Below are positions 6,001 to 59,670 of a DNA stretch of 64,000 nt, in pieces (within the stretch, counting starts at the first letter, position 1; each line of letters starts with the position of its first letter). The translations under genes were made by a program, and so were the position numbers. The notes below the pieces were generated by a model. It did not search any database and was not told the origin of the DNA. It saw nothing but the letters and a program-made list of their open reading frames with translations. Source of the stretch: Sycon ciliatum (Eukaryota > Porifera > Calcarea > Leucosolenida > Sycettidae); assembly GCF_964019385.1 (NCBI RefSeq), contig NC_088643.1:74508396-74572395 (forward strand). The letters are read 5' to 3'.

Positions 6001-9000
6001 ATCCACATTGTATCCATTGCTGCTGTGTACTACTGATTACAGACGCTCACAAGCTGGGTGCAGTCATTTGTGGAGAAGGCAGGCCAGGAAAAAGCCAGCA
6101 CTGCAACATCTGCTTCAAGCTCCTCTGCCGAGTCTACTGAAGTAAGTGTTATGTCCTGTCTCTGCTCTCGTTATTTCTTCCTTCCCTTATATGTATTCGT
6201 GTGAGGTAATTTCGGTCCTCTGCATCAAAAGTTGCATTTTAATGAAGCCTGTTTGTCATGGGACCTTCTTCGAACTTCAGTCTTAAATGTTTGTTGGGTA
6301 GCCATCTGAACTATGCAGATTCCTGTTGCTGTAGAATTGGTGCAACATGCGAGGGGTGATGTTATGTTGTCATGGCATTGTGGCCACTATTGTGGAAGCA
6401 GGACTCGAGTTGAACATCCTTCTTCCATTATACTCTATCGATTTTCTTGCTTGTGCTCAGGAGCTAGAGCGTTCCCGTGAAAGGCTAAGTGCGGCGGAGG
6501 CAGAAGTTGAATCATTGAAGTCTCGCTGTGAGGAGGCTGAGGAAGTCTTGGCACAGACCACGAGTACCCTGGCTGGTATCCAAAGCCAGGTCGAGGCAGA
6601 GGATGACAAGCATATGGATAAGCTTCAGTCCTTGGAAGCAGATTTTGATCGAGTGGAAGCATCGAAAAAGAAGGTATGTCGACTTGGACAGGTGTTCTGT
6701 GCACTGTAAACTGGTCTGTATCATAGCAATGTACATGTATGGTGTGTAGGGGTGAAACAATTATACCGAGTACTCGAGTACTCGCTCGGTTTTTTCAAAA
6801 ATAATCGTACTCGGAATAAATCAGAGTACTCGTTCATACGTGGTACATGCATTTTCTACAGAAATCTGCAGTTTCAGGGCAGCAGTCGGCAGATGGTGAT
6901 GTGCAGACTGTGTGGTGAACATTTGTTCTCGAGTGGAGAGAGCCCAATTGACCCACCAACCAATATACCTGAGAAAAATGACTGCTACTCAGTTCAATCA
7001 GGGTTGCACCATGTTATTTTAAAGCCCTTGGTGTGCAATTTTTAGGAGATGAAAAATACTCGAATACTCGAATATTCGATCGGAGAAAATCAGAGTACTC
7101 GAACTCGGGATCTCAGTGCCAACTTTCACCCCTAATGGTGTGTGATGGATTTTTCAGCACCCCATATCAAGTGTGCATAACCCCCAAGAGTGCCGCTGCA
7201 GTCTTTGGGATCTGTGTCTACAGAATTTCGCATCATGTGACATACCGTAAAGTCGCGGATAAAAGCTGGGCTTATAAGCACATAAGCCGCTTTCTGCATC
7301 AGGCTTCAATGCAAACCAGGCTTCAATGCAAACCATGCTTATATGCACCACTGATATTTTGGCCAGGCTTGTATGCACATCGGCCGATCCGGGCTTGCAT
7401 AGATGCCAGGGTTCTACGCACGACACGCGTAGATCTACCACTGACTACCGGTATGGCGGCAGTTTTACTATGCACTGTACATAGCGCATGCACTCCTGAC
7501 CTACCTGATCCGCACTTGCATAGAAGCCAGGCTTCTACGCGCGACGGGCTTATATGCATTTGACCCGTTTGATTTTCAGGCTTCTATCCGCGATGTGCTT
7601 GTATGCAAACCCGGCTTTTATCCACGACTTTACGGTACTTGTACACGCTGCTTGGACCCTGAATGATACAGGTGGAATCCTGATAATTCGAACTCCAAAA
7701 TACTGGGGAATATTTTCGAATTATCCAAACATGTACCCACATCACATAATGTATGTCAAAATTCTCGCATTGTGAATGCAGAGTTGCGCAATACACCCTA
7801 CAAGACACATAACTTCGAATTATGCCTTTCTAACTTCGAATTTTCAGCAAGAGCCCCACCCGCTTTGTATGTAAGCGGGTTTCATGGGAAAATGGGATGG
7901 TTTCATGTAATCATACATGCCCTGTCCGAGGTTCGAATTATCAGGCATGATGTGGGAATCGTATTGCTTGATTAAGCGGTATGTTTGAATTATCAGGATT
8001 CCACCTGTAGCTACAGGGCTGTAAACAACCCTGCTTTGGTTACACCTCTCTGGTGGTCACTTTGCACTGTTTGCTGGCGTAATCTATTAAACCATGTCAT
8101 GTGAAACATTGCTGCCAGTGCACCGGGTACGGAACGTCACAGTGTAGGTAGTTGCGTATTCTCGGGGTTATGTATTATGCATTGGTAACATCACCGGTGC
8201 TCTGCATGGTGGCTTGCTTCTTCTTTACTATAGCTCCAAGAACAGCTTGATAGTGCAGAGACAGAGCTTGCACAGGCGAAGAACGGTCAGAAACAAATCC
8301 ACAGCCTGAGGAAGGAGCTGGAGCAATCTAAGAATGTCAATGATGACATGCAGAAGTTCCTTCAGCAGACTAGCACGCGCCACGAGGGTCATCTGAAGGA
8401 GAGTGCTGAGAAACTGCGTCGGGCCGAATCACAGCTGTCTAGCTCCAAGTCTAGGATGGAGGTGGCTGAGCAGAAAGCAAAGGCAGCGGAAGAGGCACTG
8501 GCCAAGCACCGTAGTGAGCAAACTGAATCTACGACTGTTATCGAGCAGGTATGTTCCATCCCACTGGCGTCCTCTTCTTTTTAAACCGCTTTTGCTTTTG
8601 CAGTCCTCTCAGTCTGCTACTAGTCCTTTACAAGCTGGCGTGTCTGGTTGCAGCCTGTTCACTTAGATTATGTGCAGTAGAATGTGGTTCAATTGTCGAT
8701 TTTGTGCAGGTATTCAGTAGCACAGCTGTTTCCTCCGAAGTCAGTGTTTCCATTCACGCTGTAACTTTCCTGTGTCGTATGGTGTAATTGTTGCCTTTTG
8801 TTTACAGCTGAGGAAAGACATAGAGACTTCCTCAAAGGAAAGAGAATCACTACAGAGTCGATGTGCTGAGGTAGGTGCTTTGGCCACCGGCCCACTGTTC
8901 AGCATTCGGAAAAAAATGCTAGTGCATATGATTGATCATATTGCTTTTTTGTTCTGTTCTGTTCTGTTTGGATGGTCTCTAAGCTTTGTTGTGTGTAGAA

Positions 9001-12000: not shown

Positions 12001-13648
12001 GTCAACCACAACTGCCTTCAAAGAGGCAAAGACCGTACCAAGAGTGCATAAACAAGAGTATGCAACTGTGGTTATGGGTCAGTGCGCGGCGCGCTGCCTT
12101 CATTACGTAACTTGCCTTCATCACGCTCTGAAAGCATGCATTCAAACTCTCAATTTCTCGCACGAGTCCATCCGTTTTTGCTCGATTCGTTCCAGTACCT
12201 ACACAATCTCTGAATTCTGGCGCGTGAACTCCGGTTTCGTACGAAAGTTCATTTCAAACTAGAGGGAAAGTGCGGTGTTTGATTTTCCGCAGTGCGCGGA
12301 CTCCAGCTGAATGATGTAATGAAGGCAGCGCGCCGCGCATCTGGCCCATAGAAAAGAGATCACAGTTGCATACTCTTGTTTATGGACTCTTGACCGTACT
12401 AAGGAATGAGTGTGGCCCTGGCTGTACATATCACATGGAGTGACGTTCTGCTATCACTATTGATGCTTCGAATTTTAAATTGTGGAAGCTTCGACTGAAA
12501 CTGGGTTGAATATCAAAGTTGTACTTGGTCTTTGGAGAAGGCCAAGAAATCGAAAGGTGAATGTCGCTGATTGGTCGTCTCCTAGACGACGAGACAGACT
12601 TCATTCTTAAGTACTTTATTATACATGTACATGTACTTAATTTCTTATGTTCCGTTTCTTGCCACAGATGGTCTCTAGTTTGAATGAACTGCAGACCGCC
12701 ATGTCAAAATTAGAAGTAGAAAAGCAGGAGCTTGCCGAGCAGCTGGTACGTAGTAGCGTTGTGCCTTTTTGTCTTAGATGTACTGCATGCATTTTTGCGT
12801 TGATTGGGCAATGGCAAGAGTACGTAACCCCGAGGGTGTGCAACTACATTGCGTGGCTTTTCACCAAAGTTTCTTGTGTACGTCCGTCATCAGGCTGTAA
12901 TGGCCCATCTTAGCTCTGCATAATTATTCTCAACTACAAAAAAAAAGGAAAAAATGGCAATAAATAAAACGCTTTCTGTCTCCTCGATGATTTAATATGC
13001 AAAAATACTGTTGGTTTGTGAGAAAGTCACCCCTGTACCATCTGTGGTCACTTCTTACGGCATCCACTGGGAAGTGACGATGTGCGTTATTAGTTTTGAT
13101 GTACAGTGGACATGGATCAGAATTGCACAGTCAGAGGGGGGCTATATACTCTCTGCAATGGTGGAATGAGAGGAAAACGCAACATCCTCGATCATTACGT
13201 AAATACATGTAGTTGCCTCCAGCACTCCACACTACACTATCGGCCGACCCACCGCACTTGCCTATGACCCCCCCCCCCCTAACAAGGACAGTTGCGTTGA
13301 TGAGATGTTGACAGATCCTGCAGGCAGCTGTTCCGGTTTTGCAGAGCTCGTCGGTGGAGGTGTAGATGTCGAGTGAATGATACGAAGTGTAGGAAAGATG
13401 TTTTATATGTTTAAACTGGCACAATTGCACACTTTTACATAGCACCATTGCACCTGTTGAGATGATCATTCATCAACATCCAGCGTCCATCTTTTTTTCC
13501 CCTGAAGGGATTGTAGGATACAGCAATATACAACTGGGGGCTTCTGTGTACATTTTGTTGTCTTTCCCGACATATGATGTTCCCTGTTCTGTTGTTCTTA
13601 CAGAGAAACGTCCTCAATGCATCGGCATCAGCATCTACAGACGTCTGA
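1..13648 (+). CDS. p180/kinectin-like coiled-coil protein, C-terminal 15 exons (5' partial)
   Basis: Exons I read with GT/AG borders: 1-168, 459-788, 1058-1095, 1340-1466, 2160-2255, 2741-2785, 3461-3511, 4079-4150, 6043-6141, 6461-6673, 8234-8548, 8808-8870, 11812-11895, 12668-12745 and 13604-13648, with TGA at 13646-13648. They join without a frame break into 607 residues. Nearly all of this is charged heptad coiled coil rich in E, K, Q, A and L. The middle has a hydrophobic patch with 'LRDLCPSVEVS' and 'TLTSWVQSFVEKAGQE', followed by 'LAQTTSTLAGIQSQVEAE'. From memory, order and spacing resemble the C-terminal rod of ribosome-binding protein 1 (p180) and kinectin, ER-membrane proteins that tether ribosomes or microtubule motors. 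The short tail ends in an Ala/Ser-rich stretch. The membrane anchor would lie upstream of the window. Alternatives are other long coiled coils such as golgins. Exon structure is well supported; the family name is moderately supported. Confidence 0.72.
567..698 (+). repeat. In-frame 33-bp tandem repeat, 4 units
   Basis: Four near-identical 33-bp units inside exon 2 of the coiled-coil gene encode LVALEKKKAEE four times (the third unit begins with V). A degenerate fifth unit, LAAVEKNLS, follows. An 11-residue unit matches the hendecad form of coiled-coil periodicity, so copy-number change would lengthen the rod without breaking the frame. Vertebrate p180 also carries tandem short basic repeats, but of a different sequence. 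Confidence 0.9.
1754..1968. mobile_element. MITE, TA target site, CTGTAAGACATG ends
   Basis: The intron between exons 4 and 5 holds a 215-bp element with terminal inverted repeats CTGTAAGACATG / CATGTCTTACAG flanked by TA on both sides. The interior has ATTATAACGA motifs in inverted orientation. No coding capacity is seen. The TA target suggests a mariner/pogo-mobilised element. Confidence 0.7.
2915..2965 (+). other. Possible tRNA-derived SINE fragment
   Basis: GGTACGAATCCC at about 2940-2951 resembles a pol III B box, but no convincing A box lies at the right distance upstream. Recorded only as a possible SINE remnant in an intron. Confidence 0.15.
6747..7134. mobile_element. hAT-type non-autonomous element, copy 1
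   Basis: 388 bp with terminal inverted repeats TAGGGGTGAAA / TTTCACCCCTA, flanked by a perfect 8-bp target duplication ATGGTGTG at 6739-6746 and 7135-7142. Subterminal regions are built of ACTCGAGTACTCG / ACTCGAATATTCG motifs. The interior has an open stretch on the + strand with a Cys-x2-Cys motif (CRLCGEHLF). It lies in the coiled-coil gene intron between exons 10 and 11. A reverse-oriented relative is at 52516-52883. Confidence 0.88.
7245..7635. mobile_element. MITE, TA target site, CCGTAAAGTCG ends
   Basis: Inverted repeats of about 24 bp beginning CCGTAAAGTCGCGGATAAAA are flanked by TA at 7243-7244 and 7636-7637. The interior holds short direct repeats of 'caggcttcaatgcaaac' and GCTTATATGCA motifs. 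There is no coding capacity. It lies in the intron between exons 10 and 11, close to two other elements. Confidence 0.75.
7669..8007. mobile_element. pogo-like MITE (CAGGTGGAATCC ends), copy A
   Basis: 339 bp with 24-bp inverted repeats CAGGTGGAATCCTGATAATT(CGAA), flanked by TA at 7667-7668 and 8008-8009. CAG-starting ends with a TA target are typical of the pogo/Tigger branch of Tc1/mariner. Relatives: 49335-50081 (reverse), 56804-59303 (carrying two nested elements) and a 38-bp relic at 20101-20138. Confidence 0.82.
9524..9932. mobile_element. hAT-type MITE (TAGTGTTGGGA ends)
   Basis: 409 bp with ends TAGTGTTGGGA and TCCCAACATTA. The flanking 8-mers CTCATTAG (9516-9523) and CTCTTTAG (9933-9940) match at 7 of 8 positions, as expected for an aged hAT target duplication. 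Subterminal GTTCGAA/TTCGAAC motifs are repeated. It lies in the intron between exons 12 and 13. Confidence 0.8.
10364..10776. mobile_element. PIF/Harbinger-type MITE (GGCCGCGGTC ends)
   Basis: 413 bp bounded by GGCCGCGGTCACACCGAG and an inverted GGTGAGACCGCGGCC, with direct TTA at 10361-10363 and 10777-10779. TTA is the classic PIF/Harbinger target. The interior repeats GCTGAAAGTGGCTGAA-like motifs in both orientations. No coding capacity. Confidence 0.75.
11125..11563. mobile_element. pogo/Tigger-like MITE (CAGTAAAACCT ends)
   Basis: Ends CAGTAAAACCTGTAATGGCG and an inverted CGCCTTAGATAGGTTTCACTG, flanked by TA. The motif GGCGACCACTT is repeated four to five times in the subterminal regions, a typical transposase-binding arrangement. 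439 bp, non-coding, in the intron between exons 12 and 13. Confidence 0.78.
12039..12392. mobile_element. CAAGAGT-family MITE with 7-bp TSD, copy 1
   Basis: 354 bp. The ends CAAGAGTGCATAAAC and GTTTATGGACTCTTG continue into inverted repeats reaching ATGCAACTGTG and a GC-rich block. The flanking ACCGTAC at 12032-12038 and 12393-12399 is a perfect 7-bp direct duplication. Non-coding. It lies between exons 13 and 14 of the coiled-coil gene. A diverged, truncated relative is at 59308-59600. Confidence 0.8.
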
Positions 13649-16301: not shown

Positions 16302-25658
<9,357 letters not shown>

Positions 25659-25863: not shown

Positions 25864-26688
25864 TTTTTGTGAAATCATGTGCCGGCTTTCAGACATTTAA
25901 AAACCTGTTGTAGATGTCTTCGTCCTCATTTATTAGACTCATCTGTCTTCATAAATGTAAAATACTCTCTCGCTGCTCTTTATATACACATCTTTTAGCA
26001 TTGACCTTTCAAATTTTCCCACCACCAACCAGTGCCTTTATTCATTCAACCAACAACCACATGCATGCAAGACAATTTTGATTGCAATGAATAAGTAGGC
26101 TGGAAAACCTAACGTTACTAAAATGTAACTTTCTGCATCTATCTGAATAGTTATTTTGCTCTGAGCTTCCACGAAACGACCATTCTGCTTTTCCTGTTTT
26201 TGTTAGCAAGACAATGAATGCTGTCTTTATAAACAATGAGTGCTGCTTTTATTATCAATCACCGAACCGAATGTTATTTTTCTGTTGTATTGACCTTTCC
26301 TTCATACCGCTATGCAATGTGTTACTTCTGCTTTTGCTAGTTTTATGGCTTTGTGCTGGGAACAGGGTATTACCCGGACATGATCTTCTTATCTTGAAAT
26401 TTTCTGTTCATCCCCTGTGTATACCAGTCAGACTCAGGCAGCGCTTTATTTGACAACATACCAGTACTGTTCATTGCATCTCGGTGCTCATGTACTACTG
26501 TGCTTGCAATTTTTCTTTCAAAAGCACAACGGACTTAACTTTTTTTTTTTTTTTTATGAAAGTGCACATGCCTACATAGAATGGAAGTTACTTGTGTGAC
26601 CATTGTTGTTTTTGCATACTCTTACCGTGCAGTGACTGCATCGTACAGCTCTGTAAGTGTGCAGCTGACTGCCGTGTATGGGTATATC

Positions 26689-26717
26689 CAAGAGTACATA
26701 ACCCCCTGGACTCTTTG
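26689..26717. mobile_element. 29-bp deletion relic of the CAAGAGT family
   Basis: CAAGAGTACATAACCCCC followed directly by TGGACTCTTTG: both ends of the family with the interior lost. It is flanked by GTATATC on the left (26682-26688) and on the right (26718-26724). The right copy is also the left TSD of the next element. Confidence 0.7.
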
Positions 26718-26724
26718 GTATATC

Positions 26725-27006
26725 CAAGAGTACATAACCCCCCAGAGTGTGCAACGCCTGATCCAGCTCTGCATAGGGTCTTGGTCGAGCGGAATCGGAT
26801 CTTTGCGTCATAATACCGTACACATCTGAGGGGAACCCGGGGAGTCGCGGGTACTCTTGGATCAAAAACAATGGTGCCCTGCCTCGAGACCGGCCTTGCG
26901 CTGGTGTGAAGTGTACGCATGACATCAGAAGATCCGATTCCGCTCGACCAAGACCCTACACAGAGCTGGATCGGCATTGCACACTCTGGGGGGTTATGTA
27001 CTCTTG
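26725..27006. mobile_element. CAAGAGT-family MITE, copy 2
   Basis: 282 bp with ends CAAGAGTACATAACCCCCCA and its inverse. Long inverted repeats (about 100 bp, including GGTCTTGGTCGAGCGGAATC) make the element nearly a foldback. Perfect 7-bp TSD GTATATC at 26718-26724 and 27007-27013. Confidence 0.88.
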
Positions 27007-27210
27007 GTATATCTCATCAAGAGTATGTCCCTGAGGAGTGTGCAACTCTCCACTATGGGTGTTGTCTCGGCAGAATTTCAAGTTGAAGACGTTAGTCATT
27101 GTTATGATGCATTCTACACATGTACAGTACCTACAAGTACAATCATGCATATGCTGGTACTACATTGTAGTATGCATGTCATACTACCAGCATAGGCATG
27201 TAGGTAGTAC

Positions 27211-27442
27211 CAAGAGTCCATAGCCCCAAGAGTGTGCAACTGGTCTGGCTGCTGTTAGCCTGTACTAGGCTGTAGGCCCACTGCAGAGCGGAATTCCAAC
27301 ATTACGTCCTGCCGCTGAGGCTTGGAACCAGGGAGTAGTACAAGCGCAACGAACGTGTACGTCATTTTTGATGTAACGTTGGAATTCCGCCGTGCAGATC
27401 CCCATGCACAGAGTTGCACACTCTTGGGGTTATGGACTCTTG
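27211..27442. mobile_element. CAAGAGT-family MITE, copy 3
   Basis: 232 bp with ends CAAGAGTCCATAGCCCCAAG and its inverse. Left flank GTAGTAC (27204-27210) and right flank GTAATAC (27443-27449) match at 6 of 7. It abuts copy 4 through the shared GTAATAC. Confidence 0.85.
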
Positions 27443-27449
27443 GTAATAC

Positions 27450-27865
27450 CAAGAGTACATAAACCAGAGTGCAACTCGGGATGGTTCCTGTGGGAGCGTA
27501 ATTCGTGCAGTACGTCATTTCTGACGGCATGGTAAACCACAGGTACGGTGAAAAGTTGCGTAACCAGTCGCGGTGGTGCAGGTCACTGAGTTTGTCCTGA
27601 TTTCGGTTTTTTTTGATACGGATAGCCTGGTGACTTTACTTGTCAGTGGATGTATGCAGCGTACACAGTCACACAAAACACCGAAATCCTGAAACAGGAC
27701 GTCTAAAATCAAGCAAACTTGGCCGGTTTCCAGGCTATGAAACATGAAAATTTGAGCTGTACGCAAGTCGCGGCTTGGCTGACCTCATCAGGGTGACATA
27801 GTGCACGAACTGCGCTGTTTCAGATCTGACATGCACAGTTGCACACTCTGGTTTATGTACTCTTG
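27450..27865. mobile_element. CAAGAGT-family MITE, copy 4
   Basis: 416 bp with ends CAAGAGTACATAAACCAGAG and an inverted CTCTGGTTTATGTACTCTTG. Perfect 7-bp TSD GTAATAC at 27443-27449 and 27866-27872. The interior contains an inverted CATGAAA/AAACCGG region. No coding potential. Confidence 0.88.
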
Positions 27866-27982
27866 GTAATACTGTACATGTGTTTTATAATTTTATTATG
27901 TGTATCACCAAAGTGACGCTCACTGCATTCATTTCAACCCGGAGCAGTCAGCAGTTCCAGGACACTACAATAATTATAGGTA

Positions 27983-33937: not shown

Positions 33938-34020
33938 GTGAGTGATAAGCCTGGTGATTCCTTTAACTTGCATTGAAATTTACTATAGTAGCCGGCGGTA
34001 TCCTTATTTTTGCTGTCCAG
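33938..34020 (+). other. 5' UTR intron of the BAF gene
   Basis: AGG|GTGAGTGATAAG at 33938 and a pyrimidine tract with TTTTTGCTGTCCAG ending at 34020 form a clean 83-bp intron directly upstream of the ATG. Confidence 0.65.
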
Positions 34021-34027
34021 CCTAAAC

Positions 34028-34300
34028 ATGAGTTCCACCAGTCAGAAACATCGTGATTTCACCGGTGAGCCTATGGGCGACAAGGATGTCACTGAATTGC
34101 CTGGCATTGGACCCGCTCTCGGCGGCAGACTGAAGGAGCAAGGCTTCGACAAGGCCTACGTCGTCTATGGTCAGTTCTTGGTGCTGAAGAAGAACGAAGA
34201 GCTATTTCTGGACTGGATTAAGCAGACTTGTGGTGCGAACGCGAAGCAGGGTGGAGATTGCTATCAGGCCTTCAAGGATTGGACAAACTCCTTCTTGTGA
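34028..34300 (+). CDS. BANF1: Barrier-to-autointegration factor (BAF/BANF1), complete
   Basis: A single coding exon of 90 residues, the normal BAF length (89-90). It starts at the ATG that gives [18 protein letters not shown], the BAF N-terminus, whose Ser/Thr are the VRK-type phosphorylation sites in homologues. The helix-hairpin-helix [12 protein letters not shown] binds the DNA backbone non-specifically, and [18 protein letters not shown] and FKDWTNSFL match the rest of the fold. BAF dimers bridge DNA and bind LEM-domain proteins and lamins during nuclear envelope assembly. The earlier in-frame triplet at 34010 is not ATG and lies in the intron, so 34028 is the start. Paired with RRP36. 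Confidence 0.97.
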
Positions 34301-39071: not shown

Positions 39072-39356
39072 TAGGGACTCGATGACGATGTTGTGCTGTG
39101 GGTCTCTCGTCTGACTACCATCATAATCATTGGCCACTGCCCTGCATCAGTCTATTTGGTGACATAAATGCGTAAATGAGAGCCGGATCATGATCAAGCA
39201 AGCTACAGTACATAATAACATTGTCATTGTACAACTACATTACAAGACACAAGAGCACAAGTCAAGCAAAGTTAGCTCTCTCTTTCTGTCTATCTGTCTG
39301 TCCGTCCACCATTTTCTCTGTCTGTCTTTCGCATCACCTTACATGATACACACACA

Positions 39357-40856
<1,500 letters not shown>

Positions 40857-43800
40857 ATGCCGTTTGGGGGTGGAGCGAAATGTGGCCTTTGCGCCAAGAC
40901 TGTGTACATGAATGAGGAGGTGAAATTCAACTCCCAAAGCTGGCACAAGCTCTGCTTCAAATGCGCGGGTTGTAGCAAACTTCTCGAAATGGGTGCAGCC
41001 GTCGATCATGGCCAGAAAATTTATTGCAAGCAGTGTCACTCCAAGAGCTATGGAACGGCAGGGTACGGCCATGGTGTAGGGGCTGGAGTTCTCAGCACAG
41101 ACAATGGCCGTGGTCCAACAAGCACTGCACCTCAGAGGCCTGCCGCGAGTCCCGCGACTGCTGCTGCCAAATCGTCGTACGGTAAGGCAACATGATTTGC
41201 TGGTTCTGTAATAGGTTAATATTGTGTGGCTATTGTTACGTGTTGAGGTAAATCGCGCTCTCAATCCAGCAATTGACAGTTGGTAGAGAAATCTCTTGCA
41301 CTGCAGGTCTATGGTTGAATATCGTACTCGTATCGTCCACCTGAGGCAAGCTTCTTGGACCGGCTGTGATTGGTTTTGGCGGAAGTCCTTGAAAATGCAC
41401 CCATTCCCAACCCAAATCAGACAAATGACTCTGCAAGTGCAAAGTTGCCAAACCTAGTCAGCCGGTGTGGAATGCCGATAGAGATATCGTGGATATCCAC
41501 ATGTGTGTCGCACTATGGTTTGTTGCTGCTACGTAACTCACTGTAACTACATAATATTGTACTAACTAACAGTAACTGTTACTTGTGTCAGGAATGTTGC
41601 TTGGGGGTGACCCAGACAGGAATACTAAAATAGTAGATCATGCATCAGTACACGTGTGACTGGAATACCCACCACCAATGCCGCAATGGCACCATCCCTA
41701 CTCTGCACAACATTTATGTGGATGGTATAGACTACGGTACAGTACTGCTGGTCTCATGCCAGGGGGAGACCAGCACTGCGGTGTTCTTGCACCATGCACA
41801 AGGCATGAATACTGGTTGTACTTGTAGTGCGCGCAGTGATGTATTGTGTGCCGTGCCCGAGGCAAACTCTATAATAATTGTGTTGGCCACTTCGTATCCT
41901 GCTCTCTTTCGTTTTATCTGGTGTTTAAGCTGCTTTCCCAATTATTTGACGTTGTATAGAAGTGATTGACTGCTAAGTCATGTGTACTGTACAGTGCTAT
42001 TCAATGAAATCCGATCGGGAGAGTCAAGCTTACGCCCTGCACCATTTTGCATCCCAGTACTCGCAGGTCTTGGGCTTTACAGCACCCGCAGCGTGCCTGA
42101 CCCACACGATCGGATTTCATCGATTTTCATTTTACCTGCAAGCTTCAACAAAATAGTACATGTATCATTATCTGATGAGCTAGATAGATTCCCTGATCTG
42201 GACCTGCGCCTACGAGGGCCTCTGGCAAATGGCCCTCACATCAGTGATGTAGGACTGGACAGGTCTTCGTGTCACTGGACAGCGCAGAGAGACACTATGG
42301 TCATGTCTAGAGACACTATGCCTATGGTCATGTTTTAGTTATGTTTTCTCTCTATTTCATGTTTAGGTGCATACCGTACCCAGAATGCCATGCGGTCGCA
42401 GGATAGTGTGGGAGCCATGGTTGGCAGCGGCGGTAACAAATGCCCACGCTGTGGCAAGGCGGTGTACCATGCTGAGAAGCTCGTGGCCCTGAGCAGAGTG
42501 AGTGGAAATTGTGTGTGTGGGGGGGGGGGGGGGGGGGGGGGATGTTGCTGTTTCTTGTCATTGATTGCCAACTAACTTCACAACAAATATTTGTATCCAC
42601 AGTGCCACACACAAAGCCAGTGATTTTCTTTGTCACCGGGCCATGCATGATTTCTTTGAGGTCATTTGTCTAGTCCAACTACATGAAGTGATTGTAATTA
42701 ACACCAGTGTTATGTGACTGAACACATTTGTAGTACATGTGCCTGGAAGTAGACCAATGTACTGGTACATGTAGTCTACAATACCTGTGTAGTATGCAGA
42801 ACATGTCTACCATACCTGTCTAGTGTGCAGGGCATGTTGTAGTTTACGATACGCGTGTAGTGTGCAGGACAGGTTAGCGTTTTGTAGTGGAGGAAAACGT
42901 GGCAAGTATGCCTTTTGGGGGGCACTTTAGACGCAAGTGGCAGCCTTTTGCAACTGCAATGTTGTTGAGTGGTACAATTGATAATACATTGTGCTTTTTG
43001 AAGTGGACTTCGCCTTATTAGGGCTCTGCTTTGCCCTGGGTACGTAATTGTACAGTATACAATGATACAAGCATACATTTGCCTCATGGTTCTTTTCTTT
43101 GACACATAGTACATCTGGACTTCCTCAGCTTTGTCTACAAAAATTTTGGTTGTGACAAAGAGCTGATCTGCTGATACCTGCTTACTAGTAGCAAGAGTAC
43201 ATGAAACCCGGAGTGTGCAGCTCAGATGGGTTGCTGTCAGGGTGAAATTCTGGAATTACATCATGTTAGTGATGCAGGGGGATACAACCAGGATTCATGC
43301 AGGTTCCTGCTGTGCAACTGCAGCTCCGTTGTACGCACTGTGCCACTTCTCGCCCACATCTGCGCCAACTATGATTTAATCCTGGAATTTCGCCGTGACA
43401 GACACCCAGACCATGCAGAAAAAGTCAGAAGCTACCCACTCTGGGTTTCGTGTACTCTTGCTAGTAGTACCAAGAGTGGGTAACTCCATGGAGTGTGCTA
43501 TGGATCCACCAACAATGAAAAGAAACTCACATCATGTGATGTAGTATTCACGTTGTACGTCTCCAGCCTGTTTTAGCAAACAGTGAAGTAAAACTAGCAC
43601 ACCGGTGACCCTGACAAGAAACCCACTCAGCATATGCGATTCTTTAACATGACCGTGGTGCAAGTAGGTACTGCTGGTATCCGGACTGTGCGTGTGCTGG
43701 CCTTCATTGTATGTGGTGCGAAGCGTACTTGGAAGAGGTGATGTGAGTTTTCCCCGTTGAGGACCCATAGTCATAGTTGCTCACTCTTGATGGTCTTTAT

Positions 43801-45244
43801 CTACTCTTGGTAGTATCTACCTTGCCTGTTTTTACTCCTTTGGAGCATTTTTAGATCTCGCCGACCCAATGTGTGCATCGATGTGAGACTAAACACATAA
43901 GGCCAGTTTAGGTGGCGCTTGGGGTGAGATCGAACCTGTTTTGTTCCCATCGGTACAGCTTACCGCATGGCTGACAGGATATGGTAGTTGGAAGTGGGAA
44001 ATGAGGGTGTGTCTTAGCCAAGGTGTCCAGTTAGGGAAGTTCTACGCCACGGCTTCTAAAGTGCAATGCTCATGTGTCCTGTCCGACTATCCGTTTTAAT
44101 ATTACTATCCTGAGGCTTCTTTCATTTGACATACCTGTGTTTGTCTCCTTGTTGGTGCGTTGTCGCTTGTGTTCACAGGATTGGCACAAGCTCTGCTTCA
44201 AGTGTGCTGACTGCAAGAAATCTCTGGAGCCTGGAAACTTTGGTGATAATGAAGGAGAGATCTACTGTAGAGGTACGTTATTCCTTTCATGAATTATTAC
44301 CGTAAATACTAGTATAAGTAGAAACTGTTGGTTGGTTCAGGTGGCGCTTCAGTACATCAAAGTCTTGAGCTGAATTACAACTACTGCAGACATGGTTAGC
44401 ATTTCACCGTCTACGCTAAATCCAACAGTACTCGTACCCAGCACACACGTCGGGTTGGTATCATTTTCACGTTAGCAGGTTCTTGTTAGCGGGAGAACTA
44501 AACGGTAAGATTCCACCTAGGGTGATGTTGCAAGCCAATCATTGTGTCAGAAACGGAAATGCTAATCATGACTTGTACATAGACAAAATAATGCTACATG
44601 CCGACTGTCGAAATTATGGTGAACAGTAAAGTGCTAACCCTCTCTAGTAGTAAGTGTTGGCCCTCGGTGGGAACTAGAATGGCTTCACTGTTCAGGCTAG
44701 CTTTCCCCACATACTGATGGAGACGGCAGACCCGCTCTCCTGGCACTGTGATACAGGAGTCCACAGCGTGCGCCTCACCATGGCCACTCTACGTCATACC
44801 CAGTGCAACATGAGAAAAAGCGCACCATTGCTCAACTGACTGCAAAGCTGTCAGCTCCCTTTCAGGGGACGCATTTATCTTCTGGCTCAAAAAAAGTATT
44901 AAGTGTAGCGCTGATGGCTGGGAACTTGAGGGTGTTGTCGTACGAACGTGTGATGTGTGTGACATATGCCACGAGGTTGTAAGTCATGATTGCTCAACCA
45001 CAGAACCAAAGAACATACTTCAAGTAGTAGGGAGTCCAGCTTCTGACATGCTGGTAGCTCAGTATATAGAGTCGGACTCAGGGCATGACAGTACATGTGG
45101 CGCTGGTGCTGGCTGTAATAGGACCTCGTGTTTATTGTATTGTGTCTGTTGGTTCTCTTGTGCCCATCTTCAGGTTGCTACGGCCGCAAGTTTGGCCCGA
45201 AGGGTGTTGGCTATGGAGTCGGTGCTGGTGTTCTCTCATCCTGA
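40857..45244 (+). CDS. CRP/MLP-type two-LIM protein (4 exons, complete)
   Basis: Exons: 40857-41181, 42367-42497, 44179-44272 and 45174-45244 (TGA). All are in phase and give 206 residues; CRPs are usually about 190-210. LIM1 (residues 9-60) has C9, C12, H30, C33, C36, C39, C57 and C60, the exact C-x2-C-x17-H-x2-C-x2-C-x2-C-x17-C-x2-C pattern. It is followed by the glycine-rich [15 protein letters not shown]2 has the same spacing ([20 protein letters not shown]) and ends [21 protein letters not shown]. Cysteine- and glycine-rich proteins bind alpha-actinin, zyxin and actin filaments and shuttle to the nucleus in muscle and contractile cells. An Ala/Ser/Pro-rich linker of about 55 residues separates the LIM domains. 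CSRP1/2/3 paralogue assignment is not possible. Intron 2 holds two tandem MITEs. Confidence 0.95.
41992..42120. mobile_element. Truncated MITE, relative of 34581-34921
   Basis: CAGTGCTATTCAATGAAATC at the left after TA, and a decayed 'gatcggatttcat' at the right without the final bases. It lies in intron 1 of the LIM gene. Confidence 0.6.
42519..42541. repeat. Poly-G run
   Basis: About 23 G in a row shortly downstream of the LIM exon 2 donor. Confidence 0.95.
43192..43460. mobile_element. CAAGAGT-family MITE, copy 5
   Basis: 269 bp with ends CAAGAGTACATGAAACCCGG and an inverted GGGTTTCGTGTACTCTTG. Perfect 7-bp TSD CTAGTAG at 43185-43191 and 43461-43467. Intron 2 of the LIM gene. Confidence 0.85.
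43471..43809. mobile_element. CAAGAGT-family MITE, copy 6
   Basis: 339 bp with left end CAAGAGTGGGTAACTCCATG and a right end closing TTATCTACTCTTG. Flanks are GTAGTAC (43464-43470) and GTAGTAT (43810-43816), 6 of 7. Its left flank overlaps the right TSD of copy 5, so the two are immediate neighbours. Confidence 0.78.
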
Positions 45245-46013
45245 ATGCTCGTTGTCTTTGGTTGTGTTGACGGCGCAATCAGTTTTATTTTTTAAATCCG
45301 TAGATAACGTCACAGAATATGATTATCCTCAGTAGACCTATCATAGTAAATGACTCACTATCACGCCAGCATATTTTAAGTGCAGACTTTTGTATGCCTT
45401 CTAGTCCGCCCTGCTTCATGTCCTGTTTTATCTGTATCTCTGGAACAGAACAATGGCACGCCGTTTAGCTGTGTATGCCAATATGAAAATCTGAACTTGC
45501 CAGCGTACGTGCATCAAATAATGTGATTGTGGTTGTGTGAGCGTGTGCACATGTCTGTTTTCACTGGTACGAAGGAACCGTGAGGATGTACTGCTGAGTT
45601 CGGGGCTAGTTGGGATTTTGTGAGATGGTAATGCGATCTGCTGTGTTCTATGAGTGTCAGGTGGTGACAAGTTCCATTGCACACAACGGTAGACTAGATG
45701 ATACGGTCGACTCACAAAAAGTCACATCTGTGATGTGGTGACCTTCTACCACTGGCAACCTCACAGTCACCGTTCACCCTATTTTGACTATAATCATACC
45801 GAGTTGCCGGTATTTGACAATTCCCTGCTAGATACACAAATCCAGTCCCCATTCATTTTGCGAGCACCTTCGAACCTTGACTGATGAGTACGAGTACTGT
45901 ATACTGTAGTTTACGGTATGTGAACATGGTGTTTTTGTGGTGTCTGTGCGTCCCAAGATGGACTGCATTTAGGTTCACTTATATTTATAAGCCCATGCGC
46001 TTAGGGGCCGTCC

Positions 46014-47072: not shown

Positions 47073-47700
47073 TTAGAGATATCTTACAGCATCGATACAA
47101 ATTCAGGAATGTCGTTCCACACAATCATAATATTTCCGGTGATATAGCAAAGAAAAGGACCTGAACTACAAGGAAGTTACATTATGATAGTGATGTCCAC
47201 TAACCATCTAACACCACGATGACATTGTACTACTTGACAATCAGCTCATTCGATAACATCACGACACTGACCGACGTATAAACTAATAATTATTACTAAA
47301 TTTGGCTCTTCATCTGATTTTATGGGGAAACGAACATTTATTTTTGTACCGCCATAATTATCAACAATAAGGCACAATTGTACAAGCAGTTCGGCGGAAC
47401 AAGATATCAAAAATTATTACTAACTACTACCCAGGACTGTTGTACTAGCACCTTGAGCCAGGATTTGGTAGGGATTAGTCTGTCTAGTACGTCTCGATAT
47501 CTTCCTAGACGTAGTCGGTGGCAAACCGTACCTGTACCAGGTGACTGTCATTTGTAGTCAATACAAAATAATTGTTTTAGTCTCTCAAAAGCAACAATTA
47601 CGAAACAGCCTTCAAGTTCTACGTTCCTCGCCACCATTACAAGGACTCGTTGACCAATCAACAAACATGCACACACAAAACAAACATATCTTTCTTTTGA
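47073..47700. other. Gene-free stretch 3' of H2A
   Basis: AT-rich sequence with no exon and no element whose ends I can define. Confidence 0.4.
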
Positions 47701-47711
47701 TTGAAAGTGGT

Positions 47712-47727
47712 GGCTTTTAAAAAAGCC
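47712..47727 (-). other. Histone 3' stem-loop of H2A
   Basis: On the minus strand GGCTTTTTTAAAAGCC forms a 6-bp stem with a TTTA loop, followed by ACCAC. About 10 nt further, a purine-rich TCAAAAGAAAGA fits a histone downstream element. It is about 40 nt after the H2A stop. Confidence 0.92.
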
Positions 47728-47765
47728 GGGTAGATTGGTTGAACAGGGAGGAAGGATGAACGAAT

Positions 47766-48146
47766 TTATGCCTTCTTGCTCTGGCCAGTCTTCTTCGGGA
47801 GAAGAACAGCCTGGATGTTGGGCAGGACACCACCCTGAGCGATGGTGACATGCGACAAGAGGCGGTTCAACTCTTCGTCGTTTCGGATGGCCAACTGCAA
47901 GTGACGAGGGTTGATTCTCGTCTTCTTGTTGTCGCGGGCAGCATTGCCAGCCAGTTCGAGGATCTCAGCGGCCAGGTATTCCATGACGGCAGCCAGGTAA
48001 ACTGGTGCGCCAGCTCCTACACGCTCAGAGTAGTTACCATTGCGGAGAAGACGGTGGACACGACCGACTGGGAACTGAAGTCCAGCACGGGATGAGCGGC
48101 TCTTCGCCTTTCCCTTAGCTTTTCCTCCCTTGCCACGGCCTGACAT
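47766..48146 (-). CDS. H2A: Histone H2A (canonical), complete
   Basis: An intronless frame of 126 residues, a typical H2A length. It opens [20 protein letters not shown] and continues with [20 protein letters not shown], the acidic-patch region [40 protein letters not shown] and a C-terminus ending KKTGQSKKA. There is no SQ[E/D] tail (H2A.X) and no H2A.Z-type sequence, so it is the replication-dependent form. It packages DNA in the nucleosome as a dimer with H2B. Transcribed away from H3 with a shared 392-bp intergenic promoter; a TATAAAAG at 48231-48224 (minus) serves this gene. Confidence 0.98.
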
Positions 48147-48949
<803 letters not shown>

Positions 48950-48985
48950 ATTTCGACACTCTGCAAACGAATCAACCAATCAACC

Positions 48986-49001
48986 GGCTTTTTTAAAAGC
49001 C
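48986..49001 (+). other. Histone 3' stem-loop of H3
   Basis: GGCTTTTTTAAAAGCC followed by ACCAC, identical to the H2A stem-loop. It fits the animal consensus GGYYYT-loop-ARRRCC. AATAAA at 49007-49012 and the purine-rich AATCAAAAGAGAA follow directly. Confidence 0.93.
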
Positions 49002-49334
49002 ACCACAATAAATCAAAAGAGAACTGTGTCTTGCACCTTTTACTGTATCGTGTGTTCTGTTCCCTTCACAGGTACGTCTAGCTCTTGCAAGGTCAGTGCA
49101 GCGTCGTTTTGTTTTGTACAGTACTAGGTAGTGCATGAAAATCACTTGTAACTGGAAGTTTAGTGTTAGGGGTTATGTATTCTTCGTGATGATAGCAGGA
49201 GCAGGTTTGGAGGTCTACTTATTATTGTAACGTAATTTCATTGGAAGGACATCAGTACAGGTGCAGATCCTCCTCGCGCAGTGCATGCAATCTCTTTATT
49301 GGTATATTTGCGTAAGCCCTGACAGAATTGTACT

Positions 49335-56676: not shown

Positions 56677-57098
56677 TGGAACCTGTATTATTAGGATATG
56701 CACTTATTGTGCAGCCCTGCCTAAGCGCTCTGTCGATGACGTCATCACATGTACTGTACTACAGGGTAGTGCAGGCTATACACGGGCTACTACAATAGTA
56801 GTACAGGTGGAATCCTGATAATTCGAACCTCAAAATGCCAGGATAAAACTTCCAATTATCCGGACATTCTAATTATCCAAACACAAACCCACAACACAAT
56901 ATGTATGTCAAAATGCTCCCATGGTCACGCAGAGTTGCGCTATGGATCTTAGACACATATTTCACGGATACTGAACTGACCGGCACAGCCTGCTCATGCA
57001 AACTGAACTGACCAGTACAGTGCACAGTGAACTTCGAATTACACTTTGCTAACTATGTTACTTCGAATTATGAGCACAAATCACACACATTTTCTATA

Positions 57099-57300
57099 CT
57101 GTAAAATGTAAATATACAACTTTTCGGCAGCTATTTAATTTCCGCTATATTCGGCACCGACCCAAAATGCCTAAATTAAAACGCCGATGAAAATTTTCAC
57201 AGCATCTGTCGCACTATACCATGCCCTCTAGCCCACGCCGAAATGTCAAAAATCATGAAGTGCCAAAATTTCGCAGTGCCGAAATTTTGTATATTTACAG
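57099..57300. mobile_element. TA-target MITE (CTGTAAAATG ends), nested
   Basis: 202 bp. The ends CTGTAAAATGTAAATATACA / TTGTATATTTACAG, with TA on both sides, enclose TTTTCGGCAGC and CGGCACCGACCC. It is the intact relative of 50162-50596 and is inserted in pogo-like copy B. Confidence 0.8.
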
Positions 57301-57333
57301 TATATTCAAGTGGAATCCGTGGGACTTCTACTT

Positions 57334-59161
57334 AAGGTAGCAGTAACCCCAAAATTTCGAAAAAAATTGAAAGTTTCAGATACCGTTGTACCTTTACTTT
57401 TTGATATCTATAAACTCCAAAGAGGCCGTACAGAAAATTTGAGCCCAATTGGACCACACAGAACACTTTGCAATGTCAAGTGCAGTAAAGACTTTGATAT
57501 CATGGGATACAGGAAAGGTACTTGACGTTGACGTCTTGTCCAAGTATTGCCCAATGTGTGAGAGTTGGCTAGCCAAGAAAAAGCATGGCTCCATAACTGC
57601 TGCTGCTTACGATACGTGGCACCTTGATCATGCGCCTAACTGCCAAATAAACACAGAAGTGTCGTCACCCAGCATGGAGACCGAAGCTGTGAAGAGGATA
57701 TGGAGCAGGTCATTGGAACAGCACAACTTGAGGTATACAACCTATATAGGTGACGGAGATTCAAAGGGTCATGCAGCTGTTCGACAGATGGCGGTGTACG
57801 GTAGCATCAAAATAACCAAAGAGGAATGTGTAGGACATGTACAGAAGCGTGCGGGCAAGAATCTACGTGACCTGAAGCAGCGCTTAGGCTCCACCAAATT
57901 ATCTGATGGCAAGGCCATAGGAGGAAGAGGAAGACTGACAGATGCAGTGATAAATTCAATGCAGAACTACTATGGTCGTGCAGTGAGAGATCACCGTGGG
58001 AGTGTCACTGATATGGCCCGCGCTATTTGGGCATCGTTCTGCCACACTTTCTCGACCGACCAGTCGCCACATCACGATTTCTGCCCTAAGGGAAGTGACT
58101 CGTGGTGCAGATGGCAGGCAAGCCAAGTGACAGGTGAGCCATTCTCCCACAAGTACAACTTGTCCACTGCAATCAAGGACCAGGTGAAGCCTCTCTACAT
58201 CCGTCTTGCAGACAAGCCGCTTCTAGAACGATGCAAGCTGGGAGCCACACAAAACGCCAATGAGTGCCTCAATGGCCTTATCTGGCAATTGTGTCCGAAG
58301 CAATCATTCTGCATTGTCAAGACAGTGGAGACTGCTGCTTATTTGTCTGTGATCATATTCAATAATGGGTACGGTAAGCTGGACGCAGTTCTGGAGAAAA
58401 TGGGATGCGGTACTGGTACATTCACTGGCCAAGCCTTAGCTCAGCTGGACAGTGTCAAGGCCTATCACAAGAGAAGGAAGTCATCAGACAAAGAACAACA
58501 TGCCAGGAAGAGAAGAAGAGCAGTCAAGAAGGGCTACACTGGCTCAGCTCTTGAAAAGGAAGGAGTCACCTACTGTGCTGGTGGGTTTTAGTGCATTTTA
58601 GAGTACCAATTTTTAGTGTTTTTTTACTACTTCCGGAGCTTTGTCCCACCGTAGTTTTGTCATTTTTCATCAAAACCCTAGAACCAGTAGATCATTTTGG
58701 AATAGAACGAAATTTCCTAGGTGCCAAACCTCTCAAATTGCAAGTTACATGCATTTGTTGAGAGGCATTCCTTGCTCTAAGCTTTGCCTGAATTTTCGCC
58801 GGTCCGCACTTTGAAAATTTCATCATGCATGACACTTCTTCTGTGCCCTTTTTATGTGTTTTTGGAGGTTTGGCACCTCAAGGTGTCTGTTGGCCACCAG
58901 AATGCCTAATAATATTGCATCTGGTGCCTTTCCTGGCAACAGAATGCTGCGACAAAAATTAGCTTCGCAAAATCGCACTGCGTTCTTTTTTGTTTCCTCA
59001 ATAATTTGTAGCCCTTTGCTTCTGCTGTCTTATTGACTGTTTCACCAGAAACAATATTGTATTGTGAGTGAGTGCTGACAATTTGAAAGAGATCCATCAC
59101 GCCTGTCCACAGTTATGGGAGTTCTTGCGCAGTCAGTCGGATTTGGGGTTACTGCCACCTT
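57334..59161 (+). mobile_element. Mutator-like element, nested
   Basis: 1.83 kb with 20-bp terminal inverted repeats AAGGTAGCAGTAACCCCAAA / TTTGGGGTTACTGCCACCTT (one mismatch), carrying the transposase frame at 57449-58591. I see no clean 9-bp target duplication. The boundaries are supported by the interrupted sequence of the surrounding MITE. Confidence 0.78.
57449..58591 (+). CDS. Mutator-like transposase, N-terminally truncated
   Basis: An open frame of 380 codons; the true ATG may be at 57473 (MSSAVKTLISW). Recognisable parts, in order: GKVLDVDVLSKYCPMCESW, a conserved His/Cys pair (LDHAPNCQIN), RYTTYIGDGDSKGHAAV (probable catalytic Asp), CVGHVQKRAGKNLRDLK, GGRGRLTDAVINSMQNYYGR, then CPKGSDSWCRWQ and TQNANECLNGLIWQLCPKQ (probable catalytic Glu). 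This is the layout of the Mutator-like transposase domain proteins spread through animal genomes. The N-terminal part with the first catalytic Asp is absent: a stop lies just upstream at 57440-57442. Unless an upstream exon supplies it, the protein is inactive. The basic tail RRKSSDKEQHARKRRRAVKK looks like a nuclear localisation signal. Confidence 0.82.
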   Translation: MDHTEHFAMSSAVKTLISWDTGKVLDVDVLSKYCPMCESWLAKKKHGSITAAAYDTWHLDHAPNCQINTEVSSPSMETEAVKRIWSRSLEQHNLRYTTYIGDGDSKGHAAVRQMAVYGSIKITKEECVGHVQKRAGKNLRDLKQRLGSTKLSDGKAIGGRGRLTDAVINSMQNYYGRAVRDHRGSVTDMARAIWASFCHTFSTDQSPHHDFCPKGSDSWCRWQASQVTGEPFSHKYNLSTAIKDQVKPLYIRLADKPLLERCKLGATQNANECLNGLIWQLCPKQSFCIVKTVETAAYLSVIIFNNGYGKLDAVLEKMGCGTGTFTGQALAQLDSVKAYHKRRKSSDKEQHARKRRRAVKKGYTGSALEKEGVTYCAGGF

Positions 59162-59307
59162 GACCGAACATGTCCAGTTCGAGGTTCGAATTATCAGAAC
59201 TTCTTATGTGGGAATCGTATTGATAGAAATTGGTCCTGGAAAAACTTCTAAATAAGCGGTATGTTCAAATTAAGCCATATTCGAATTATCAGGATTCCAC
59301 CTATAAT

Positions 59308-59600
59308 ACGAAGAGCTCATGTAGACAAGAGAATGCAACTGTGGCTATGGGTCAGTGCGTGGCACCCTGCCTTGATTACGTAGCTGACTGGCCTGCATCA
59401 TGCCCTGCACTCATGCAACAAACCCCACATCGTACCAGCACATCTGGTTTTGCTTGATTCGTCCGAGCACAGATACGATCTCTAAATTCATTGCAGGTGC
59501 ATGAACTCCAGTTCCGCAAGAAAGTTGGTTTCAAGCCACAGGGAAAGTGTGCTGTTTGATTTTTCTGCAGTGCGCGGATATCCCTGCTGTCCGCCATGCA
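59308..59600. mobile_element. Diverged relic of the CAAGAGT family
   Basis: CAAGAGAATGCAACTGTGGC at about 59328, GGGTCAGTGCGTGGC and 'gatttttctgcagtgcgcgga' at about 59560 follow the order of copy 1 (12039-12392). The ends and TSD are lost. Confidence 0.6.
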
Positions 59601-59608
59601 GCGGTTTT

Positions 59609-59670
59609 AACGAAAAAATCACAGAGCTCTTCTCTGTTAAAACAGAGAAGAGCTCTGTGATTTTTTCGTT
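59609..59670. repeat. Perfect 30-bp-arm palindrome
   Basis: Two exactly complementary 30-bp arms, AACGAAAAAATCACAGAGCT... and its inverse ending ATTTTTTCGTT, separated by AA. No mismatch in 60 bases. Confidence 0.95.

What the first reader, a model, noticed from the sequence alone, without database searches (positions are those of the whole stretch)
26682..27872. Transposon family with 7-bp target duplications that inserts next to itself
Elements with CAAGAGT...ACTCTTG ends carry exact or near-exact 7-bp flanking repeats: GTATATC (26725-27006), GTAATAC (27450-27865), GTAGTAC/GTAATAC (27211-27442), ACCGTAC (12039-12392), CTAGTAG (43192-43460) and GTAGTAC/GTAGTAT (43471-43809). A solo end at 40403 is preceded by GTATTAC. 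Most flanks fit GTA(N)TAC or a close variant. A 7-bp TSD does not match the common superfamilies (TA, TTA, TTAA, 8 or 9 bp) that I know; Dada elements (6-7 bp) are the nearest I can recall. This looks like a family with a defined palindromic target.
Basis: partly seen in the sequence, partly recalled or inferred. Interest (0 to 1): 0.82.

Follow-up and report, generated by a model that had tools for sequence, protein, structure and literature searches.

The report
Galileo/P-like mini-transposons with 7-bp targets
A family of small non-coding jumping genes in an animal genome copies 7 bases of its target on insertion, prefers the palindrome GTANTAC, and often lands in its own earlier target copies; these habits match the fruit-fly transposon Galileo (P superfamily) rather than an unknown kind of element.

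Summary
CAAGAGT...ACTCTTG elements carry in-register 7-bp flanking repeats; among 38 end pairs, 5 were exact at 7 bp and none at 5, 6, 8, 9 or 10 bp. I add a seventh element (12815-13154, TSD GCAATGG) and two 28-29 nt mini-units between 7-bp repeats (22709-22736, 26689-26717). Over 12 flanks the mean match to GTANTAC is 4.2 of 6, against 1.5 for window 7-mers, although 5 of the 12 score 3 or less. Three adjacent pairs share or overlap a TSD.

The Dada comparison does not hold. A 7-bp TSD with GTANTAC is published for Galileo, and 7-bp GTTNAAC for 1360, both P superfamily. Also P-like: a CA terminus, a shared ~31-bp end, and mini-units made of two terminal stubs, as P-type staggered excision would leave. 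Best reading: non-autonomous P-superfamily MITEs with Galileo-like targeting in a non-insect animal, tentatively a calcareous sponge.

Membership is unproven. No P transposase was found in the window, and the whole-genome search did not complete in 17 tries. P elements I read about outside Galileo and 1360 have 8-bp TSDs, so this would be a worthwhile new member.

The parts
12039..12392 (.). two-ended element, 354 bp, TSD ACCGTAC on both sides
12815..13154 (.). newly found two-ended element, 340 bp, TSD GCAATGG on both sides; right end degenerate (..TATACTCTCT)
22709..22736 (.). 28-nt mini-unit between two GTAATAG copies, read as left stub CAAGACATAAC and right stub TTGGTTATGTACTCTTT; interpreted as excision footprint
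22831..23100 (+). solo left end (flank CTGCTAG); no right end seen; right limit arbitrary
26689..26717 (.). 29-nt mini-unit between two GTATATC copies, read as left stub CAAGAGTACATAACCCCC and right stub TGGACTCTTTG; interpreted as excision footprint
26725..27006 (.). two-ended element, 282 bp, TSD GTATATC on both sides; about 80 bp of 95-97% complementary inverted arms
27018..27203 (+). solo left end 4 bp beyond the TSD of 26725-27006; interior matches the solo end at 22831 (87% over 46 bp); right limit arbitrary
27211..27442 (.). two-ended element, 232 bp, flanks GTAGTAC / GTAATAC
27450..27865 (.). two-ended element, 416 bp, TSD GTAATAC on both sides; left copy (27443-27449) shared with 27211-27442
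40403..40434 (+). solo left end preceded by GTATTAC
43192..43460 (.). two-ended element, 269 bp, TSD CTAGTAG on both sides
43471..43809 (.). two-ended element, 339 bp, flanks GTAGTAC / GTAGTAT; left TSD overlaps the right TSD of 43192-43460 (CTAGTAGTAC)
7168..7192 (+). weak end-like remnant (nhmmer E 0.0014), flank CCCATAT

Best explanation
These are non-autonomous cut-and-paste DNA transposons (MITEs, several with foldback-like arms), most likely moved in trans by a P-superfamily transposase with Galileo-like target choice. Shown: a typical end is bipartite, CAAGAGTnCATAA, a spacer of about 1-7 nt, then CARGAGTGTGCAAC; interiors mostly differ; insertion duplicates 7 bp with a palindromic preference for GTANTAC. 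Inferred: a symmetric transposase dimer joins the two ends to target strands 7 bp apart; each insertion leaves two good target copies at its edges, so later copies insert into the TSD itself and build adjacent pairs; on excision the transposase cuts one strand at the edge and the other about 17 nt inside, and end joining leaves two TIR stubs between the TSD copies, seen as the 28-29 nt mini-units. The autonomous source is expected elsewhere in the genome.
For: 7-bp TSDs in register. GTANTAC preference: 12 flanks, none dropped, mean 4.17/6 against 1.55 background, 0 of 200,000 resamples as high; motif-free self-complementarity p about 4.5e-5 on the 10 flanks left after removing two that share or overlap another's TSD. 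The same target is published for Galileo, and 7-bp GTTNAAC for 1360, both P superfamily. Five of seven two-ended elements match one another by blastn almost only over the terminal 28-32 bp; P TIRs are 31 bp in Drosophila and 27-31 bp in Anopheles, whose P-MITEs likewise have unrelated centres. Mini-units: the top two of 503 short candidates; weaker-stub score 6.5 each against at most 6.0 in 200 decoys, summed score 24.5 and 19.5 against at most 15.5. In an unfiltered scan of 16-599 bp inserts, the exact-TSD units with both ends were 28 and 29 bp or 269 bp and longer, none between. The longest stub is 18 nt, close to the 17-nt P stagger (PMC7776569, passages). Adjacency: 3 pairs with gaps of 10 bp or less; 0.011 expected for 9 randomly placed units.
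Against: No P transposase was found in the window, so the superfamily rests on target, end length and footprints, not protein. CAAGAGT ends were not matched to any known P element. P elements read about outside Galileo/1360 have 8-bp TSDs. Five of 12 flanks score 3/6 or less. Elements 43192 and 43471 gave no blastn match to the other elements at E 1e-3; they join the family by the shorter end motif only. Mini-units: the margin over decoys on the weaker stub is narrow (6.5 vs 6.0); both end CTCTTT rather than CTCTTG; one stub is 18 nt, 1 more than 17; one unit can be read with an 8-bp repeat GGTATATC. Only two cases.
Confidence: 0.7

Rival explanations
1. The elements belong to a hAT-like group with a 7-bp instead of 8-bp duplication. 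hAT targets can also be palindromic with GT...AC edges.
For: hobo (hAT) has 8-bp TSDs with target motif GTNCGNAC, so GT..AC edges are not unique to P; CA-type termini are common in hAT (recalled).
Against: Among the 38 end pairs no flank pair matched at 8 bp; hAT excision leaves flank rather than TIR sequence (recalled), whereas the mini-units keep about 11-18 nt of both ends; the GTANTAC motif itself is reported for Galileo.
Confidence: 0.13
2. A Dada element or an unrecognised superfamily with 6-7 bp TSDs.
For: Dada TSDs are 6-7 bp and tandem Dada insertions are described (PMC3706591, passages).
Against: Dada-U6 and Dada-U1 have no TIRs and Dada targets snRNA/tRNA genes; these elements have TIRs and the Rfam gathering scan listed no snRNA or tRNA.
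Confidence: 0.05
3. A Mutator/Foldback-type element with long variable inverted repeats.
For: Long imperfect arms in several copies; a PF20700 'Mutator-like' ORF lies at 57443-58588; a rice MULE survey accepted 7-11 bp TSDs (PMC4508813, one passage).
Against: The foldback Mutator Tm1 has mostly 9-bp TSDs and no target consensus (PMC3169594, passages). The PF20700 ORF sits within different ends (GGTAGCAGTAACCCC) flanked by TTAA/TTGA, so it reads as a separate Kolobok-like element.
Confidence: 0.08
4. Sub-question, compatible with the main reading: the 28-29 nt mini-units are ordinary internal deletions or local duplicates, not excision footprints.
For: 26681-26706 is an exact copy of 26717-26742, so unit 26689 could come partly from a local duplication; only two cases, with a narrow margin on the weaker stub.
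Against: The second case (22709-22736) lies about 4 kb away with its own TSD GTAATAG; both contain a stub of each end; no exact-TSD unit with both ends was found at 30-268 bp, as a range of internal deletions would give.
Confidence: 0.35

Closest known systems
Galileo (P superfamily, Drosophila)
   Same: 7-bp TSD; GTANTAC palindromic target; long inverted arms with foldback look; abundant non-autonomous copies (PMC4168063, PMC2775673, PMC3573991, PMC3688188, passages)
   Different: here 232-416 bp copies in a non-insect animal; terminal sequences were not compared; the Galileo papers seen concern Drosophila or Drosophilidae; Galileo arms reach over 1 kb
1360/Hoppel (P superfamily, D. melanogaster)
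   Same: 7-bp TSD and palindromic 7-bp motif with free centre
   Different: motif GTTNAAC rather than GTANTAC (PMC3276498, passages)
P-MITEs of Anopheles gambiae
   Same: short non-autonomous copies with P-type ends and unrelated centres; related P elements have TIRs of 27-31 bp
   Different: 8-bp TSDs (PMC1562414, passages)
Zebrafish Pdre2 / THAP9
   Same: P-superfamily element in a non-insect animal; terminus starts CA
   Different: 8-bp TSD, 13-bp TIR with distant 12-bp subterminal repeats (PMC10983969, passages)
Dada
   Same: 6-7 bp TSD; tandem insertions at one site
   Different: no TIRs in the U6/U1 families; targets RNA genes (PMC3706591, passages)

Membership tests
P superfamily (Galileo group) | 7-bp TSD | tested here: met
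   exact in 4 of 6 reader elements plus 12815; 1 mismatch in 2 of 6
P superfamily (Galileo group) | GTANTAC target consensus | tested here: met
   mean 4.17/6 over 12 flanks vs 1.55; but 5 of 12 score 3 or less
P superfamily (Galileo group) | 15-bp target motif with AANGT / ACNTT extensions | tested here: inconclusive
   flanking 4-bp columns of 9 units were listed and show no evident AANGT/ACNTT pattern; no statistic run
P superfamily | THAP-domain DDE transposase with GTP-binding insertion | not testable with these tools
   none found in the window (tblastn; HMM of 28 sequences, best E 0.9; the same pipeline found the Kolobok ORF); genome search did not complete (17 tries)
P superfamily | about 31-bp terminal inverted repeats | tested here: met
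   28-32 bp shared between 5 of 7 two-ended elements, one pair 55 bp at 75%; 43192 and 43471 gave no match to the others
P superfamily | 17-nt staggered excision | tested here: inconclusive
   two mini-units with stubs of about 11-18 nt; indirect, n=2
Galileo | Galileo terminal sequence | not tested
   no Galileo DNA was compared
Dada | no TIR (U6/U1 families); inserts in snRNA/tRNA genes | tested here: not met
   TIRs present; no snRNA or tRNA in the Rfam gathering scan
hAT | 8-bp TSD | tested here: not met
   0 exact matches at k=8 among 38 end pairs; one mini-unit can be read with 8 bp
Mutator/MULE | mostly 8-10 bp TSD | tested here: not met
   0 exact matches at k=8, 9 and 10 among 38 end pairs; some MULE surveys also accept 7 bp

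The most novel reading that the evidence does not exclude
The Galileo target rule (7-bp GTANTAC) is not a Drosophila peculiarity but an old property of one P-transposase lineage, kept in an animal as distant as a calcareous sponge, together with the P-type long-stagger excision recorded as 28-29 nt footprints; self-insertion into the TSD is a direct consequence of the palindromic target and could build tandem arrays.
Probability: 0.43. Interest if true: 0.62.

Novelty: new member of a known kind. Interest (0 to 1): 0.45.

Why it matters
In the open-access papers I could search, GTANTAC elements are reported from Drosophila, and P elements of mosquito and zebrafish have 8-bp duplications. A 7-bp GTANTAC family in a distant animal would suggest that the 7-bp/8-bp split inside the P superfamily is old, give an outgroup for asking which transposase residues set TSD length and target code, and offer natural excision footprints as a record of the unusual 17-nt cut. 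The shared-TSD pairs also show a simple route from a MITE towards an array.

Tried and rejected
Dada was rejected. The PF20700 transposase at 57443-58588 as source of the family was rejected: its own ends and TTAA-type flanks differ. One IMG/VR hit to GTANTACCAAGAGTNCATAA (L001) is judged chance: it lies inside a long ORF that looks by eye like a serine recombinase (no domain search run). Scans of viral contigs and genome contigs for the paired end boxes gave 0 hits. Coral CMITEs, which also form tandem arrays, were dropped because of TTAA TSDs and slippage-type arrays (PMC2872659, passages). Two other '7-bp TSD' papers from the listing were checked: one concerns a truncated non-LTR copy (PMC1852546, passages), one a MULE search criterion (PMC4508813, passage). 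PMC3169594 mentions in passing a 936-bp inverted-repeat element with 7-bp TSDs in a nematode, not classified in the passages seen; so 7-bp elements outside flies are not unheard of. A P-transposase protein search gave 141 hits; of the 120 listed, those with species names are nearly all insect, plus two non-insect arthropods (Petrolisthes, Orchesella), and none has an 'scpid' name.

Rows dropped or filtered: one search left out flanks 27018 and 7168, and its palindrome test also 27450 and 43471; repeat the tests with them. In one search, decoy hits in three microsatellite stretches were removed; the real profile had none there. One search ranked decoys by the weaker stub and printed only the 8 best, so its sum limit was incomplete; one search gives both limits. 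The complexity filter lost two known elements among the longer inserts; one search repeats the scan without it, and lists one further unit (45007-45444, scores 7.5 and 5.0) that I take as chance. Confidence was lowered slightly (0.72 to 0.70; novel case 0.45 to 0.43) after these checks.

Full report
What is there. The window holds seven two-ended elements of 232-416 bp; six start CAAGAGT and end ACTCTTG, and 12815-13154 has a degenerate right end. There are also two 28-29 nt mini-units and four single ends (22831, 27018, 40403, and a weak one at 7168). CAAGAGT itself is enriched: 33 matches against a mean of 12.1 in 100 shuffles.

The duplication is 7 bp. For 38 pairs of exact ends 100-1000 bp apart, exact flank identity was found for 5 at 7 bp, 1 at 4 bp and none at 3, 5, 6, 8, 9 or 10 bp; one of the five is the 26725 element again, read from the mini-unit at 26689. 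With one mismatch allowed the count at 7 bp is 8, and 0 at 6, 8, 9 and 10. A profile-plus-TSD scan gave six rows (five distinct elements) scoring 26.1 or more, while 7 of 40 decoy profiles had any hit and none passed 13.0.

The target. Using one flank for each of 12 insertions, the mean match to GTANTAC is 4.17 of 6; window 7-mers average 1.55, and none of 200,000 resamples of 12 reached the observed value. That test is partly circular, because the motif was suggested by these flanks, though the same motif is published independently for Galileo. A motif-free test of self-complementarity gave p about 4.5e-5 on 10 flanks that do not share a TSD, and 0 of 200,000 on all 12. Five of 12 flanks score 3 or less, so the preference is strong but not strict.

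Anatomy. A typical end is bipartite: CAAGAGTnCATAA, a spacer of about 1-7 nt, then CARGAGTGTGCAAC, so a CAAGAGT-like box recurs in the same direction 14-20 nt in (read). By blastn, 5 of the 7 two-ended elements (12039, 12815, 26725, 27211, 27450) match one another almost only over the terminal 28-32 bp, with one 55-bp match at 75%; 43192 and 43471 match only themselves at E 1e-3. Longer matches are 12039 to 59322-59578 (76%) and the solo ends 22831 and 27018 (46 bp at 87%). Several copies have long inverted arms; those of 26725-27006 are about 80 bp at 95-97%, which suggests recent activity (inference).

Insertion next to itself. The mini-unit 26689 and element 26725 are separated by one GTATATC; 27211 and 27450 by one GTAATAC; 43192 and 43471 by CTAGTAGTAC, in which their two TSDs overlap. 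For nine randomly placed units 0.011 such neighbours are expected, and none of 20,000 trials gave three. The simplest reading is that a palindromic target copied at both edges stays a preferred target, so a later copy lands in it. The random placement ignores target preference; the window has 28 perfect GTANTAC sites and 2411 with at least 4 of 6 matches, so preference alone would rarely pick an edge unless edges are favoured.

The mini-units. Among all 16-60 nt inserts between identical 7-mers, a low-complexity filter left 503 candidates. The two that look most like a pair of element ends are 26689-26717 and 22709-22736. Their weaker stub scores 6.5, just above the best of 200 decoys (6.0); their summed scores, 24.5 and 19.5, are well above the decoy maximum of 15.5. 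Their TSDs, GTATATC and GTAATAG, fit the family's target. I divide each by eye into one longer stub (18 and about 17 nt) and one shorter (about 11 nt). In an unfiltered scan of 16-599 bp inserts, exact-TSD units with both ends were 28, 29, 269, 282, 340, 354 and 416 bp (plus shifted readings, the 318-bp composite, and one 438-bp row that I take as chance), with none at 30-268 bp. The P transposase leaves 17-nt 3' extensions at each end (PMC7776569, passages), so end joining would leave stubs of about that size at most. I read the mini-units as P-type excision footprints, with moderate confidence: there are only two, both end CTCTTT instead of CTCTTG, one stub is 18 nt, and 26689 lies in a local 26-bp exact duplication.

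What it resembles. Galileo makes 7-bp TSDs with consensus GTAGTAC in D. buzzatii, GTANTAC over six species and GTATTAC in D. willistoni, where three copies had 8 bp (PMC4168063, PMC2775673, passages). 1360, another P-superfamily member, has 7-bp TSDs in 274 of 279 insertion sites and motif GTTNAAC; P itself 8 bp and GTCCGGAC; the hAT element hobo 8 bp and GTNCGNAC (PMC3276498, passages). P-MITEs of Anopheles have P-type ends with unrelated centres, and 8-bp TSDs (PMC1562414, passages). Membership is not shown, because no transposase with these ends was found.

Host and source. The window is animal: histone H3 and H2A genes with Rfam histone stem-loops, a barrier-to-autointegration factor and a LIM-domain exon. 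A Kolobok-type protein in the window has unnamed best hits (five at 68-89% identity); among the 120 listed of 407, two have 'scpid' names, at 52-53%, identifiers used for Sycon ciliatum (PMC6526912, passages), and the other hits named by species are at 40-44%. BAF is 82% identical to its best unnamed relative and at most 74% to species-named entries in the 120 listed of 591. A calcareous sponge is plausible, but a transposon can move between species, so this is tentative. P-transposase searches of the window, by tblastn (best E 3.5) and by an HMM of 28 diverse sequences (best E 0.9), found nothing, while the same HMM pipeline found the Kolobok ORF. The assembly could not be searched: the tool failed to answer 17 times.

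Verdict. It is best seen as a Galileo-like P-superfamily MITE family in a non-insect animal: a new member of a known kind, with added interest from the shared-TSD insertions and possible long-stagger footprints.

Noticed in passing
window 57336-59159: Kolobok-like element: PF20700 transposase ORF (57443-58588) between GGTAGCAGTAACCCC...GGGGTTACTGCCACC ends with TTAA / TTGA flanks, nested inside a TA-flanked element of about 56804-59303 (CAGGTGGAATCCTGATAATTCGAA ends).
   Followed up: partly
window 47686-49027: Divergent histone genes H2A (- strand) and H3 (+ strand), each followed by a histone 3' stem-loop.
   Followed up: partly
window 59322-59578: 76% identical to the inside of element 12039-12392 but without the outer CAAGAGT box; a perfect 30-bp hairpin (59609-59670) follows.
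   Followed up: no
window 33992-34294: Open frame for barrier-to-autointegration factor, a host protein known to bind retroviral DNA (recalled), in the same 64 kb.
   Followed up: partly
window 18209-18879 and 39163-39915: Very long (CT)n arrays giving spurious open frames in several frames.
   Followed up: no
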